From: Pyrobaculum sp. WP30 | GTDB lineage: Archaea > Thermoproteota > Thermoprotei > Thermoproteales > Thermoproteaceae | Direction of reading: 5' to 3' | Assembly: GCA_001189275.1 (NCBI GenBank) | Contig: CP012158.1 | Span: forward strand, 1,851,704-1,915,703 | Length of the DNA: 64,000 nucleotides | Shown: positions 16,120 through 24,582 of the stretch, piece by piece | Position numbering within the stretch: position 1 is the stretch's first letter | Layout: each line of letters begins with the position of its first letter | Program-made: the position numbers and the translations under genes | The notes under the pieces: model-generated | What the model saw: only the letters and a program-made list of their open reading frames with translations | What the model was told of the DNA's origin: nothing | The model's database searches: none

Positions 16120-17046
16120 TTACCGGATTTCTATTCCGTTTACTACCAGCGGACCTGTTTCTTTCACTTGGCCTATTATCTTGGGGTTGAAGGGCTCTAA
16201 GAAGGCCAGGGCGTGTTCTACGTTGTTTTTGTCTGTGTATACGACCATGCCTATTCCCATGTTGAAGACCCGGTACGCCTCTGCGGCGTCTACGCCGCGT
16301 TTAACCACTTCTTTGAATATGCAAGGCACTTCGAAGTTTAGCTCTGCGCCTCTGTCGCCGAGCGCTTTTTTCAGCTTCTTGTAGGCGCCGCCTGTTATGT
16401 GGACGGCGCCTGCCACCGCGCCGTTTTTCATGGCCTCGAGGACGGCGCTGTAGTTGGCGACCTCGGCGAGGAGCAGGTCGGCGGCGCGGGCTCCGCAGAC
16501 CTCCTCCCCCGGCTTGAAGAGCCGGCGGAGCAGGCTGTAGCCGTTGGCGTGGGGGCCCGTGGAGGGTAGCCCTATCAACACGTCGCCTGGCTGCGGGGGG
16601 CGCGTCTTGGCGACGCGGATAGCCAGCACGGTGCAGACCACGTCGATGCCGGACACCACGCCGGGGAGCACCGCAGTCTCGCCGCCTAGGAGCACGGCGC
16701 CTACCTCCTCCGCCTTCGACGCCACGCCCTCCACCAACCTGGGCACCTTCTCTAGGTGCGCCGGCTCCACGGCGACGTAGTCCACCACGGCGACGGTCCT
16801 AAAGCCGTCGCACACCACGTCGTTGACGTTGACAGTGACGCAGTCGCGTCCCGCCGTCTCCAGCCTGTCTAGCTCCAGGGCGAGTATTGCCTTCGTGCCG
16901 ACGCCGTCTACGTGAAGCGCCGTCTCCACGCCGCCCACCTCGACCCACCCGGTGTAGAGGCCCCGGGCGCCCCCTAACCTCCGCGCCACCTCTCTATGCA
17001 CAGCCCAGTGCTTGTCTATGTCGACCCCCACGTCGCGGTACTTCAT
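16120..17046 (-). CDS. purM: Phosphoribosylformylglycinamidine cyclo-ligase (AIR synthetase)
   Basis: ATP-dependent closure of FGAM to AIR, the fifth step of purine synthesis. The ATP-grasp-unrelated PurM/PurL fold is clear: YRDVGVDIDKHW, HVDGVGTKAILALELDR, CVTVNVNDVVCDGFRTVAVVDYVAVE, VLLGGETAVLPGVVSGIDVV, GLPSTGPHANGYSLLRRLF and AVHITGGAYKKL. Length is 308, slightly short. The start overlaps the stop of the PurF-like gene by four bases (ATGA), so it is the last gene of the leftward purD-purS-purQ-purF2-purM operon. Confidence 0.95.
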   Translation of the reverse strand: MKYRDVGVDIDKHWAVHREVARRLGGARGLYTGWVEVGGVETALHVDGVGTKAILALELDRLETAGRDCVTVNVNDVVCDGFRTVAVVDYVAVEPAHLEKVPRLVEGVASKAEEVGAVLLGGETAVLPGVVSGIDVVCTVLAIRVAKTRPPQPGDVLIGLPSTGPHANGYSLLRRLFKPGEEVCGARAADLLLAEVANYSAVLEAMKNGAVAGAVHITGGAYKKLKKALGDRGAELNFEVPCIFKEVVKRGVDAAEAYRVFNMGIGMVVYTDKNNVEHALAFLEPFNPKIIGQVKETGPLVVNGIEIR

Positions 17047-18152
17047 GCCCTCATGCAGAGGGTGCAGACGGGGAGCCCCAGTTCTTTGAACACCTCCTCC
17101 AGCTCCTCCCAGCCGAGGAAGGTGAGCCCGTCTAGCTCGAGGACGTGTTTTACGTCGTCGGGCGGCACGGCGTTGAATATCATGTGGCTGGCCGGCGGCA
17201 TCTTAACGCCGTGTGGGCACTGCCTCCTCAGCGGCGGCGCAACGACGGCGGCGTGGACCTCGAGGGCGCCTCCCTTCTCTCTGAGGAGCTTGGCGATCAG
17301 CCTAAGGGTCACGCCGCTGATGACGCTGTCGTCCACGAGGAGCACTTTCCTCCCCCTAACCGCCGACTCTATCACGTTGGCCTTCAGCTGGATCACGGCC
17401 ATCCTCTCCCGTAGCTCGTCTAGAAGCGCGCTTCTGCCCCTCGCCGTGGCCACGAAGGCAGGTATATACGGCTTCCCCAACGCCGCGGCGATGTGGGCGG
17501 CGTAGTAGCTACCGGTCTCCGGCACCCCCACCACCACGTCAGGGACGACTCCGATCTTGGCGGCGAGCCTCTCGGCGACCTTCGCCCTCGCGGCGGCCAC
17601 CTCCACGCCGTCTATCCTGCTGTCGGGTCTCGCCGTATACACAAACTCAAGGGCGCAGACCGGCCCCCGCAGCCCCCCTCTCCTGGCCTCCACCGAGAGC
17701 TCCGTTATCTCCAGCTCCTCGCCCGGCGCTAGGCTCCTCCGCACTTCACCGCCGAGTATCTCCGCGGCGGCGCTCTCAGTAGCCACGATGGCGAAGTCGA
17801 AGCCGTGGGTCCCCACCGCAAGGTGCCAAAGCTGTGCGCCCCTCTTCGCCCTCAACACGCCGTCTCTGCCCAGCTCCACGTAGGTGCCGCCGGAGCCACA
17901 TCTGACGCCCCCCGGAGACTCCGCACAGCAGCCGCCGTCCGGCGAGACGCATCCCACGGCGGCCACGCCCCTCAGCGACTTCTCCGCCTCCCGAGCCAGG
18001 TCCACCTCTACCCTCCTCAAGCTACCTCCGTCGTAGACGTAGGCCTCGGCGGAGTCACCCCGGTTCGCCATGGCCTTCAACCCGTAGAAGACCAAAGGCC
18101 ACAGCTCGGCGGCGCCGCCGAAGCTATAGACGCCGAGGAGCCCCGCCGACAT
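17043..18152 (-). CDS. PurF-like protein lacking the glutaminase nucleophile (second amidophosphoribosyltransferase homologue)
   Basis: A 369-residue relative of PurF. The C-terminal phosphoribosyltransferase half is well kept: DVVVGVPETGSYYAAHIAA, the PRPP loop RKVLLVDDSVISGVTL (canonical RGTT is changed to SGVT), and a terminal CTLCMR like the iron-sulfur cysteines of PurF. The N-terminal half begins MSAGLLGVYSFGG, so the Cys that must follow Met in PurF is Ser, and the HTRYST and FNG motifs are missing. It cannot hydrolyse glutamine in the usual way. The canonical PurF is at 23293-24582. It sits between purQ and purM with two-base and overlapping junctions, so it is certainly expressed with them. 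Confidence 0.85.
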   Translation of the reverse strand: MSAGLLGVYSFGGAAELWPLVFYGLKAMANRGDSAEAYVYDGGSLRRVEVDLAREAEKSLRGVAAVGCVSPDGGCCAESPGGVRCGSGGTYVELGRDGVLRAKRGAQLWHLAVGTHGFDFAIVATESAAAEILGGEVRRSLAPGEELEITELSVEARRGGLRGPVCALEFVYTARPDSRIDGVEVAAARAKVAERLAAKIGVVPDVVVGVPETGSYYAAHIAAALGKPYIPAFVATARGRSALLDELRERMAVIQLKANVIESAVRGRKVLLVDDSVISGVTLRLIAKLLREKGGALEVHAAVVAPPLRRQCPHGVKMPPASHMIFNAVPPDDVKHVLELDGLTFLGWEELEEVFKELGLPVCTLCMRA

Positions 18153-18153
18153 G

Positions 18154-18795
18154 TCACCTCTTGAGCCACTCTTTTAAGCTGAGCCACAGCTTAAGCCCGC
18201 CCGTTCCTCCCCTCGACACGTCTCTGTCCACCGCCCGCTCGGGATGCGGCATGAGACCCAAGACGTTGCTCCTGGCGACTCCCGCCACGTCGTCAAAGGA
18301 GCCGTTGGGGCTCTCCACGTATTTAGCCGCGGCCGAGTAGGAGCCCGACGGCACGTAGCGGCCCTCGGCGTGGGCTATAGGCATGTACACCACCTCCCCC
18401 GGCTCGTAGAGGTGCGTAAAGGGGGTCTTCACGTCGTTGATCCTCACTCTTATCCACTTGGAGATGAAGCCCGGCGGCTCGTTGGGGGCCAGGGCGCCTG
18501 GGAGCAAGCCCGCCTCTGTCAATATCTGGAAGCCGTTGCATATGCCCAACACCGGCACTCCCCTCTCCGCGTCTCTGCGGACGTGCTCCACGGCCGGGGT
18601 CTGGGCCGCCACGGCGCCGGCCCTCAGGTAGTCGCCGTAGCTGAAGCCCCCCGGAAGTATCACGGCGTCGTAGAGACCGCTCTTGTAGTCTCTATGCCAC
18701 ACAAGCTCCCCCCTCAGCCCCGCCAGCCCTAAAGCCCTCAACACGTCGTAGTCGCCGTTTGTCCCGGGGAACTTCAACACCGCGACTCTATGCAT
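18154..18795 (-). CDS. purQ: FGAM synthase glutaminase subunit
   Basis: Releases ammonia from glutamine and passes it to PurL. Class I glutaminase triad: Cys in GVPVLGICNGFQIL (about residue 85), then His and Glu in LMPHPERAVD near 193-197. The start is MHRVAVLKFPGTNGDYD at 18795; the longer upstream frame belongs to purS. It overlaps purS by eight bases and is followed after one base by the PurF-like gene. With PurS and the small PurL it forms the three-part FGAM synthase usual in archaea. Confidence 0.95.
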   Translation of the reverse strand: MHRVAVLKFPGTNGDYDVLRALGLAGLRGELVWHRDYKSGLYDAVILPGGFSYGDYLRAGAVAAQTPAVEHVRRDAERGVPVLGICNGFQILTEAGLLPGALAPNEPPGFISKWIRVRINDVKTPFTHLYEPGEVVYMPIAHAEGRYVPSGSYSAAAKYVESPNGSFDDVAGVARSNVLGLMPHPERAVDRDVSRGGTGGLKLWLSLKEWLKR

Positions 18796-19042
18796 GGGCC
18801 ACCCGAACCACCTCGACCACGTGTACGTTGGGGTTCCCCAGCCTGAGCTCCCACGCAAGCTTCACGGCCTTCTCCCTAGCCTCATCCTCGCCGGAGGCCT
18901 CCAGCGTCAGGACAAGACACCTGCCGGCCCTCACATCTACGTCGAGGCCAGCCCGGCTGAAGAGCTCTCTCTTTATGGTGTCGCCTTCGGGGTCTCTAAC
19001 CCCGGGCTTATACGCTATGTTTAGATAAACCGCGAACTTCAT
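18788..19042 (-). CDS. purS: FGAM synthase small subunit
   Basis: An 84-residue protein, the PurS dimer that bridges PurQ and PurL. Typical sequence pattern: VYLNIAYKPGVRDPEGDTIKRELF with the basic, Pro-Gly-containing first hairpin, and a DEAREKAVKLAWELRLGNPNVHVVEV C-terminal helix and strand. It overlaps purD by four bases upstream and purQ by eight downstream. Confidence 0.95.
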   Translation of the reverse strand: MKFAVYLNIAYKPGVRDPEGDTIKRELFSRAGLDVDVRAGRCLVLTLEASGEDEAREKAVKLAWELRLGNPNVHVVEVVRVAHA

Positions 19043-22479: not shown

Positions 22480-23296
22480 GGGGACAGATGAGATGCATGG
22501 GCCTCCCGGAGTCCCGCCACTCTTTTAGTTGAAACTCCACATAAGCCCTCTGTCTCTCTCTCCACTGCTGCATCCAGGCCCCGTCGATGTTTAAAATGGC
22601 GTAGGTCCTCTCAACCTCCTCCTCTATGTACCTAATGCGTCCCCCCTCCTCAACCACGCGCGGCACCTTTACTTTCTCCGTCCGCACCTCCAGCTTCCCC
22701 TCCGCCACTGCCTGTATCACGCGGGAATACAGCCTGTGTTCATATATCAAGACGCGGTCTGCCACTATGCCCAACTTCTCCTCGTAGGGTAGGTTCAATG
22801 CGTAGATGTCGCCTATGTAGACGGGCCACTGGTCCAGTACGGGGCCTCCGTCCACCGACTCGTCCACTAGGTGCACTGTGGGGCCCGTCACCTTCGCTCC
22901 TGACCTGTACACCTCGGCGTGCACCCGCATGCCGTACATGCCCTTGCCGCCGGCAAAGGGGAGGAGGGAGGGGTGTATGTTGAGGATCCTCCAGCGGTAC
23001 TGCTCTATGAACGAGGCGCTGAGGATGTAGTCGTACCCCGCCAACGCCACTAGGTCCACGCCGTAGCGCCTAAGCGCTTCTAGAATCTCCCTCTCCCGCG
23101 CCGCGCGGGGAACTCCCCGGTGGGGGATAAAGAGGGCATCTACGCCGTAGGCCTCTGCTATCTTCCTCACGGGGGCCTCGGCGTCGCTGTAGATGAGCAG
23201 AACCGGCTCGACACCCCTCAAGACGCCCAACCTCACGTGGTCGAAGATAGCCTTGGCGTTGGTGCCTCTCCACGAGGCGAGAACCGCGAGCCTCAT
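22463..23296 (-). CDS. purN: Phosphoribosylglycinamide formyltransferase with C-terminal extension
   Basis: Formylates GAR with a formyl-tetrahydropterin. Core motifs: LAVLASWRGTNAKAI at the N-terminus, VALAGYDYILS, ILNIHPSLLPFAGGKGMYG (catalytic Asn and His) and VTGPTVHLVDESVDGGPVLDQ (catalytic Asp). The 277-residue length exceeds the usual ~200; the last ~75 residues (KVPRVVEEGGRIRYIEEEVER and a basic amphipathic tail) are extra. It overlaps purF by four bases and folD by 17. The other archaeal choice, formate-dependent PurT, is not seen in the window. Confidence 0.93.
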   Translation of the reverse strand: MRLAVLASWRGTNAKAIFDHVRLGVLRGVEPVLLIYSDAEAPVRKIAEAYGVDALFIPHRGVPRAAREREILEALRRYGVDLVALAGYDYILSASFIEQYRWRILNIHPSLLPFAGGKGMYGMRVHAEVYRSGAKVTGPTVHLVDESVDGGPVLDQWPVYIGDIYALNLPYEEKLGIVADRVLIYEHRLYSRVIQAVAEGKLEVRTEKVKVPRVVEEGGRIRYIEEEVERTYAILNIDGAWMQQWRERQRAYVEFQLKEWRDSGRPMHLICPHGCLD

Positions 23297-24582
23297 GGCC
23301 TCGCCACGGCGGCGGCGCGTCCGCTCGTCACCTCCCTCTCAGCCCAGGCCACGTCTATGTCGTGCAGATATTTTCCGGTGAAGCATGCGTAGCAGACGCC
23401 CTCCCCAAGGATTTGGACGAACCTCTCCATAGACATGTAGCGGAGGGTGTCGGCGCCTATCATGGCTCTTACGTCCTCCACATCTCTGCCCCACATCGCC
23501 AGCTCTCTCCGCGTCTGGAAGTCCATGCCGTAGAAACACGGCCACCTCACCGGCGGCGATACGATCCTCACATGAACTGCTGTGGCTCCGGCGGCCTTCA
23601 GCATGGGCACTATAGACCTTAGGTTTGTGCCTCGTATCAACGTGTCGTCTATCAGAAACACGCGACGCCCAGCCACCAGCTTCTCCACCACGCGGAAGAC
23701 GGCCTCTGCGTCTCTCTCGCCGGGCGGCTTCAGAAAGACGCGGCCGGCGTAGCGGCTCTTCACCACGGCGTCTACCACTTCGAGGCCCAGCCTCTCGGCG
23801 AAGCCGGCCGCCGCGTGTCTAGCCGTCTCCGGCACGTAGCTCACCACGTCCGCACGCTCGGTCTCCTCCTCCGCCAGGGCTCTGCCCAAGAGCCGCCTCA
23901 CCTCTGCCACCAGCCGGCCCCCCAAGCTGGACGCAGGGTGGGCGAAGTAGACGTGCTCCAAGGCGCAGAGGCGAGGCGGCTGGGGATCCACCTTCCAGGT
24001 GGAGATCCTCTTGCCGTAGAGAGCCGCGACGCCGGGGGCCAGCTCCACGCCGTCGCCGTCGAGCGCTATGGTCTCAGAGGCCGCCTTGAACAAGCCGCCT
24101 TCATTACTTACCGCCAGAGGCCTAACGCCGCGGGGGTCTCTCACCGCCAGAAGGCCCCAGGGCAGAAGCGCCACGAGGGAGGCGGCTCCCACGATCTTTC
24201 TGTAGACCTCGGCGACGCCGGCCTCCAGCCCCAGCTCCCAAATCGCCCTCGCGAGGCCTTTGGCAAGGGCCTCGCCGTCGAAAGAGGCGGAGGGGTCCAG
24301 CTGTCTGTAGTTGACGATCGTCCCGTTGAAGGCGACGGCCAGCTCCATGTCTCTATACTTGGCGTATACAGGCTGGGGCTGGACGCCGTAGGCCCCCGTG
24401 GTGGAGTACCGCGTGTGGAGCAGGGCGGCTGGCGCGTCGTCTGGGGGCTGGCCGATCTTTACAGAGCCGCCGTCTAGATAGGCGTAGCCCACCCCCTCCT
24501 GCCCCCTGTGCATGAGCCAAGGCGTCATCTTCGCCACGGCGCTTCCCGCCCCCTCGCCCCAAGCGCCTCCGACGCCGCACAT
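23293..24582 (-). CDS. purF: Amidophosphoribosyltransferase (canonical)
   Basis: Commits PRPP to purines by making phosphoribosylamine. The nucleophile Cys follows the initiator Met (MCGVGGAWGEG), and the glutaminase signatures HTRYSTTG and FNGTIVNYRQL are intact. The PRTase PRPP loop is RRVFLIDDTLIRGTNL, and the C-terminal CYACFTGKYL cysteines match the iron-sulfur site of the Bacillus-type enzyme. Length 429. Compare the cysteine-less paralogue at 17043-18152. Between purL (one base away) and purN (four-base overlap). Confidence 0.95.
   Translation of the reverse strand: MCGVGGAWGEGAGSAVAKMTPWLMHRGQEGVGYAYLDGGSVKIGQPPDDAPAALLHTRYSTTGAYGVQPQPVYAKYRDMELAVAFNGTIVNYRQLDPSASFDGEALAKGLARAIWELGLEAGVAEVYRKIVGAASLVALLPWGLLAVRDPRGVRPLAVSNEGGLFKAASETIALDGDGVELAPGVAALYGKRISTWKVDPQPPRLCALEHVYFAHPASSLGGRLVAEVRRLLGRALAEEETERADVVSYVPETARHAAAGFAERLGLEVVDAVVKSRYAGRVFLKPPGERDAEAVFRVVEKLVAGRRVFLIDDTLIRGTNLRSIVPMLKAAGATAVHVRIVSPPVRWPCFYGMDFQTRRELAMWGRDVEDVRAMIGADTLRYMSMERFVQILGEGVCYACFTGKYLHDIDVAWAEREVTSGRAAAVARP

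What the first reader, a model, noticed from the sequence alone, without database searches (positions are those of the whole stretch)
17043..18152. Second PurF homologue without the glutaminase cysteine inside the pur operon
The protein keeps the phosphoribosyltransferase fold and the terminal Cys cluster but has Ser in place of Cys after Met, no RYST or FNG motifs, and SGVT instead of RGTT in the PRPP loop. It is tightly coupled with purQ and purM, while a full PurF exists 5 kb away. It could be an ammonia-dependent enzyme, a regulatory subunit of PurF, or a new PRTase.
Basis: partly seen in the sequence, partly recalled or inferred. Interest (0 to 1): 0.7.

Follow-up and report, generated by a model that had tools for sequence, protein, structure and literature searches.

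The report
Archaeal PurF' paralogue without glutaminase
[quoted passage not shown] the protein class was described in 2011, and its strict pairing with the normal enzyme across many archaea suggests an obligate partner subunit whose job is still untested.

Summary
ORF 17043-18152(-) is a full-length PurF-fold protein (AlphaFold pLDDT 94.5; best solved match B. subtilis PurF) without Cys1, R73/Y74 and N101/G102 of the glutaminase. It is intact and under purifying selection. Correction: Ala3, not Ser2, aligns with Cys1. It is not a new kind of protein: Brown et al. 2011 (PMC3261824) named it PurF', found it in every crenarchaeon they studied, and suggested an ammonia-dependent activity.

New here: PurF' is one monophyletic family that reaches Asgard, Bathyarchaeota, Methanomethylicota, Brockarchaeota, Aigarchaeota and Methanofastidiosia, usually directly downstream of purF. 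In 397 genomes, 94 have both, 188 only PurF, 113 neither, and none PurF' alone (two apparent cases are contig ends). All 112 unique PurF' keep R261, D263, R332, K349, D366, D367 and G372 of the PRPP site, more strictly than PurF does; none keeps R73/Y74.

Best reading: an obligate partner of PurF with a working PRPP site, probably in a mixed PurF-PurF' enzyme. Whether PurF' catalyses or regulates is open; complex formation is inferred. A control weakened the stronger claim that PRTase chemistry moved to PurF'.

The parts
17043..18152 (-). purF' : PurF paralogue without glutaminase site, 369 aa
   Evidence: ORF; TIGR01134 and Pribosyltran hits; AlphaFold model pLDDT 94.5; Foldseek to PurF structures, TMq 0.81-0.86
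18144..18146 (-). codon 3 (Ala), the position of the catalytic Cys1 of PurF
   Evidence: alignments
17796..17804 (-). GFD motif (G117-F118-D119), near-invariant in PurF' and absent from PurF
17382..17435 (-). PRTase flexible loop RSALLDELRERMAVIQLK (R240 = E. coli R332, K257 = K349), invariant ends in PurF'
17307..17333 (-). PRPP loop DDSVISGVT (D274-T282)
17655..17657 (-). C166, equivalent of B. subtilis Fe-S ligand C236 (ligand role from general knowledge)
17217..17219 (-). C312, equivalent of B. subtilis Fe-S ligand C382
17055..17066 (-). C363-x-x-C366, C-terminal Cys pair
16120..17046 (-). purM, overlaps purF' by 4 nt
   Evidence: TIGR00878; gap
18154..18795 (-). purQ (ATG start at 18795), ends 1 nt before purF'
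   Evidence: TIGR01737
18788..19042 (-). purS-type small protein
   Evidence: NF004450
19039..20481 (-). purD, first gene of the purD-purS-purQ-purF'-purM unit
   Evidence: TIGR00877
23293..24582 (-). purF, the paralogue with an intact glutaminase site (Cys2 codon 24577-24579), in the purL-purF-purN-folD unit

Best explanation
This is PurF', the archaeal paralogue of glutamine-PRPP amidotransferase that has lost its glutaminase site. It most likely works only together with PurF, as the non-glutaminase subunit of a mixed PurF-PurF' enzyme at the first step of purine synthesis. PurF hydrolyses glutamine. PurF' binds PRPP in a well-kept PRTase site, and either helps turn it into phosphoribosylamine with ammonia supplied by PurF or senses PRPP and sets PurF's activity. 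Shown: loss of the glutaminase residues, retention of most PRPP-site residues and the Fe-S cysteines, purifying selection, full-length fold, monophyly, co-occurrence and co-loss with PurF, and purF-purF' gene order. Inferred: physical association, PRPP binding, and the choice between catalysis and regulation.
For: (1) 397 phylum genomes: 94 with both, 188 PurF only, 113 neither, no genuine PurF'-only; the two apparent exceptions are PurF' at a contig edge, one with the end of a purF frame directly upstream. (2) In the order, PurF/PurF' presence follows PurL presence, so PurF' is lost with the pathway. (3) 82 of 102 unique loci with both genes have purF then purF' adjacent on one strand, with frames overlapping or less than 150 bases apart. 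(4) PurF' 112/112: R261, D263, R332, K349, D366, D367, G372; Y258, T304 and S368 111/112. 10 of 15 chosen PRPP-site positions fall among the 17 near-invariant PRTase-domain columns (hypergeometric 4e-9). MD work on E. coli GPATase reports contacts of K349, T333, R371 and T374, among others, with the PRPP analogue (PMC7953260). (5) R73 and Y74 are absent in all PurF', while C1, R73, Y74, N101, G102 and D127 are invariant in PurF wherever the residue is covered. (6) dN/dS about 0.09-0.33. (7) PurF' model: pLDDT 94.5, PurF fold over the whole length.
Against: No complex could be modelled or tested. In the family of this genome purF and purF' are not adjacent (4.5-14 kb apart in most Thermoproteaceae loci, here in separate gene units). 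Co-occurrence counts are not independent across related species. R371 is lost in 46% of PurF' and F334 in all, so catalysis is uncertain. PurF from genomes without PurF' varies at R261, D263 and K349 too, so erosion of PurF's PRPP site does not show that chemistry moved to PurF'.
Confidence: 0.6

Rival explanations
1. PurF' is a stand-alone ammonia-dependent phosphoribosylamine synthase (the proposal of Brown et al. 2011) that makes PRA from PRPP and free NH3, a second route beside PurF.
For: PRPP-site residues are kept in all PurF'. E. coli PurF with Cys1 changed to Ala or Ser still uses ammonia (cited in PMC3261824).
Against: A second route should sometimes replace PurF or be lost alone, but no genome keeps PurF' without PurF, and the one-contig genomes of PurF'-bearing families have both or neither. 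F334 and in many cases R371 are lost.
Confidence: 0.2
2. PurF' is a purely regulatory pseudoenzyme of PurF that senses PRPP or nucleotides and does no chemistry, like PRPP synthetase-associated proteins or HisZ (analogies from general knowledge).
For: Same distribution and gene-order evidence as the best explanation. PurF' has lost the K326/R328 pair; K326 is a GMP-site residue in E. coli PurF (PMC3347571).
Against: Strict retention of K349, D366, D367 and R332 in 112/112, although PurF itself varies at K349 and D366, is more than a pure scaffold or nucleotide sensor would seem to need.
Confidence: 0.25
3. PurF' is a PRTase with another substrate or pathway that happens to lie in the pur operon.
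For: PurF' has a diverged flexible loop with a conserved signature and a family-specific GFD motif.
Against: Co-loss with PurF and PurL, direct tandem with purF in many archaeal classes, never found without PurF.
Confidence: 0.07
4. A decaying duplicate or pseudogene.
For: The Ntn domain is shorter than in PurF: the two long helices H102-117 and H119-129 of the PurF model have no counterpart.
Against: Intact frames across the family, dN/dS about 0.09-0.33, near-invariant active-site residues.
Confidence: 0.01

Closest known systems
PurF' of Crenarchaeota (Brown et al. 2011, PMC3261824)
   Same: Second PurF-like protein, no N-terminal Cys (often Ala or Val), own cluster in the tree, near pur genes, beside a true PurF.
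   Different: No difference that sets this protein apart. The survey here extends the family to Asgard and several other archaeal classes, and adds PRPP-site retention, gene order and co-loss.
Glutamine-PRPP amidotransferase PurF (TIGR01134, EC 2.4.2.14; PDB 1ao0, 1ecb)
   Same: Full-length fold, PRTase domain with DDS motif, R332, K349, four Fe-S-type Cys.
   Different: No Cys1, R73, Y74, N101 or G102; shorter Ntn domain; no KNRY in the flexible loop; R371 is Ser; score far below the TIGR01134 cut-off.
Methanocorpusculum labreanum Mlab_0150 (Brown et al. 2011)
   Same: A PurF duplicate with the active-site Cys replaced (Ser).
   Different: Reported there as a recent duplication of Mlab_0202, not part of this old clade; not examined here.
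PRPP synthetase-associated proteins; HisZ of ATP-PRT (general knowledge)
   Same: Inactive paralogue or regulatory partner working with a PRPP enzyme.
   Different: Different families; an analogy of how it may work, not of descent.

Membership tests
PurF' (Brown et al. 2011) | PurF-like protein lacking the N-terminal catalytic Cys | tested here: met
   Ala3 aligns with Cys1
PurF' (Brown et al. 2011) | falls in a cluster separate from true PurF | tested here: met
   112 PurF' monophyletic in the FastTree tree; local support of the node 0.65
PurF' (Brown et al. 2011) | co-exists with a Cys-bearing PurF, near purine genes | tested here: met
   window PurF 23293-24582; pur genes on both sides
Glutamine-PRPP amidotransferase (PurF, EC 2.4.2.14) | N-terminal catalytic Cys | tested here: not met
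Glutamine-PRPP amidotransferase (PurF, EC 2.4.2.14) | glutamine-site residues R73/Y74 and N101/G102 | tested here: not met
Glutamine-PRPP amidotransferase (PurF, EC 2.4.2.14) | score above the TIGR01134 cut-off | tested here: not met
   128.9 against 350 bits; the window's true PurF also falls short, at 262.8
Glutamine-PRPP amidotransferase (PurF, EC 2.4.2.14) | type I PRTase domain with PRPP motif and flexible-loop residues | tested here: met
   DDS, R332, K349, R261, D263 kept; R371 is Ser and F334 is Ala
Glutamine-PRPP amidotransferase (PurF, EC 2.4.2.14) | glutamine-dependent PRA formation | not testable with these tools
   needs an enzyme assay
Ammonia-dependent PRA synthase | PRPP + NH3 to PRA activity | not testable with these tools
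   needs an enzyme assay
Subunit of a PurF-PurF' complex | obligate co-occurrence with PurF | tested here: met
Subunit of a PurF-PurF' complex | physical association | not testable with these tools
   complex prediction was not on offer

The most novel reading that the evidence does not exclude
Many archaea run the first purine step with a two-gene amidotransferase in which PurF is mainly the glutaminase and PurF' mainly the phosphoribosyltransferase, with ammonia passing between paralogous subunits. In this genome PurF has changed R261 to H, D263 to A, T333 to V, K349 to V and T374 to N, while PurF' keeps all five (T333 as Ser).
Probability: 0.25. Interest if true: 0.7.

Novelty: new member of a known kind. 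Interest (0 to 1): 0.42.

Why it matters
PurF is the committed, feedback-controlled step of purine synthesis and is treated as a single-gene enzyme. If a large part of the archaea, some Asgard lineages included, need a second, glutaminase-dead PurF, then their enzyme is mixed and its regulation differs from the textbook case. The question has been open since 2011. The near-invariant PRPP site, the strict pairing and the tandem purF-purF' loci give clear constructs to co-express and test.

Tried and rejected
Reciprocal degeneration (PurF loses its PRTase site, PurF' takes it over): attractive in this genome, but PurF from genomes without PurF' shows the same kinds of change at R261, D263 and K349, so it is kept only as the novel case. 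Loss of R371 (SGVT) as a sign of PRTase death: many PurF' of other archaeal classes still have VRGTT or VRGNT, so the change is partial. PRPP-sensing transcription factor (GfcR/PurR type): the model has only Ntn and PRTase domains and no DNA-binding domain. GlmS-like matches: those genes lie elsewhere in these genomes and match only the Ntn part of TIGR01134. The first genome-contig scan with the single protein found nothing; the alignment query worked. Paper searches for later work on PurF' found only the 2011 paper as directly relevant; most subscription papers and preprints are not held. Promoter scan uninformative (sigma-70 model).

Full report
What is there. The ORF at 17043-18152 on the minus strand encodes 369 aa from an ATG. 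It is the fourth gene of a tight purD-purS-purQ-purF'-purM unit (gaps -4, about -8, 1 and -4 nt, taking the ATG start of purQ at 18795), while purL-purF-purN-folD form a second unit upstream on the same strand. The genome (1.99 Mb, one contig) holds two PurF-type matches: this protein and the PurF at 23293-24582.

Observation. Pfam finds only a PRTase domain; TIGR01134 purF matches residues 111-367 well below its cut-off. The best solved relatives by sequence are B. subtilis and E. coli PurF. The two paralogues are 33% identical over the PRTase domain. In alignments the N-terminus MSAGLLGVYSF sets Ala3, not Ser2, against Cys1. R73, Y74, T76, N101, G102 and D127 of the glutaminase are all changed or deleted; Y258, R261, D263, T304, R332, R342, K349, D366, D367, S368, G372 and T374 of the PRPP site are kept; T333 is Ser, F334 Ala, R371 Ser. 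The four Fe-S-type Cys are present.

Known or not. Brown et al. 2011 (PMC3261824) described exactly this: each crenarchaeon studied has two PurF-like proteins in two clusters; the second, PurF', lacks the Cys and lies close to purine genes; an ammonia-dependent activity was suggested and left for experiment. No later work on function turned up in the library.

Distribution. With a PurF' profile, 397 genomes of the phylum (at least 90% complete) gave 94 with both proteins, 188 with PurF only and 113 with neither. Two apparent PurF'-only genomes have PurF' at the contig edge; in one the truncated purF end is visible directly upstream. In the order, the genomes with PurF and PurF' are those with PurL; G042, a one-contig genome, lacks PurF, PurF' and PurL, as expected of a purine auxotroph. 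A scan of genome contigs (bacteria and archaea) kept 80 loci, all with archaeal titles: Thermoproteales, Desulfurococcales, Sulfolobales, Bathyarchaeota, Methanomethylicota, Brockarchaeota, Nezhaarchaeota, Aigarchaeota, Thaumarchaeota MAGs, Jordarchaeum and Baldrarchaeum (Asgard), Methanofastidiosia. This is wider than the crenarchaeal range reported in 2011.

Gene order. Of 102 unique loci with both genes, 82 have purF followed directly by purF' on one strand. Exceptions are mainly Thermoproteales: divergent neighbours in some, and 4.5-14 kb apart in the genus of this window and its close relatives.

Anatomy of the family. PurF' is monophyletic in the tree, 112 of 112 (node support only 0.65, so the exact root is uncertain). 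All PurF' lack R73 and Y74; only the three Jordarchaeal ones keep Cys1, and they also keep N101-G102, which looks like an intermediate stage. In contrast 112/112 keep R261, D263, R332, K349, D366, D367 and G372, and 10 of 15 chosen PRPP-site positions are among the 17 near-invariant PRTase columns (p about 4e-9; the site list was compiled from motif knowledge and PMC7953260, and sequences are related, so the p-value is indicative only). The K326/R328 pair of the flexible loop is replaced by a TGR-type motif in most; K326 is part of the GMP site in E. coli PurF (PMC3347571). A GFD motif in a loop that varies in PurF is a family signature of unknown role. R371 is kept in 54%, lost in the lineages that include this one.

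Control. PurF from genomes without PurF' was examined in the same alignment: the glutaminase residues are invariant in both PurF groups, and R261, D263, T333 and K349 vary in both. Hence erosion of PurF's PRTase site is not specific to genomes with PurF', and the idea that chemistry moved to PurF' rests only on the strictness of PurF' conservation.

Selection and fold. dN/dS between this PurF' and those of relatives is 0.12-0.33, and 0.09 for two close pairs of relatives, similar to PurF where it could be computed (dS is near saturation for the more distant pairs). AlphaFold gives pLDDT 94.5, pTM 0.91 for PurF' and 91.2, 0.90 for PurF. Foldseek matches PurF' over its whole length to PurF structures (TMq 0.81-0.86). 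The Ntn domain persists but lacks the two long helices H102-117 and H119-129 of PurF.

Interpretation. Strict dependence on PurF, co-loss with the pathway, the common tandem order and a kept PRPP site fit a partner subunit of PurF better than an independent enzyme, which should sometimes stand alone. Whether PurF' catalyses (with ammonia from PurF's glutaminase) or regulates is not decided by sequence. I put 0.6 on an obligate PurF-PurF' enzyme in some form, 0.2 on a stand-alone ammonia-dependent synthase, and 0.25 on the purely regulatory variant, which overlaps the first.

Noticed in passing
L117:3432-4787, L123:5974-7329, L142: Jordarchaeal PurF' keeps the catalytic Cys and an N-G pair but not R73/Y74, and still passes the TIGR01134 cut-off (376 bits for L117); it looks like an evolutionary intermediate.
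   Followed up: partly
window 17796-17804: GFD motif near-invariant in PurF' and lacking in PurF, in a loop that varies in PurF; role unknown.
   Followed up: partly
window 23293-24582: The true PurF of this genome scores below the TIGR01134 cut-off and has R261H, D263A, T333V, K349V and T374N in its PRPP site plus a 3-4 residue deletion in the flexible loop.
   Followed up: partly
window 18788-19042: The PurS-type protein matches NF004450, still named 'hypothetical protein' in NCBIfam.
   Followed up: no
G042, G069-G075 and other handles: Many archaeal genomes of at least 90% completeness lack PurF and PurF' altogether (113 of 397), presumably purine auxotrophs.
   Followed up: partly
L085 and L086 (G136:C1): In one complete genome of family f27 purF and purF' are about 1 Mb apart, unlike most relatives.
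   Followed up: no
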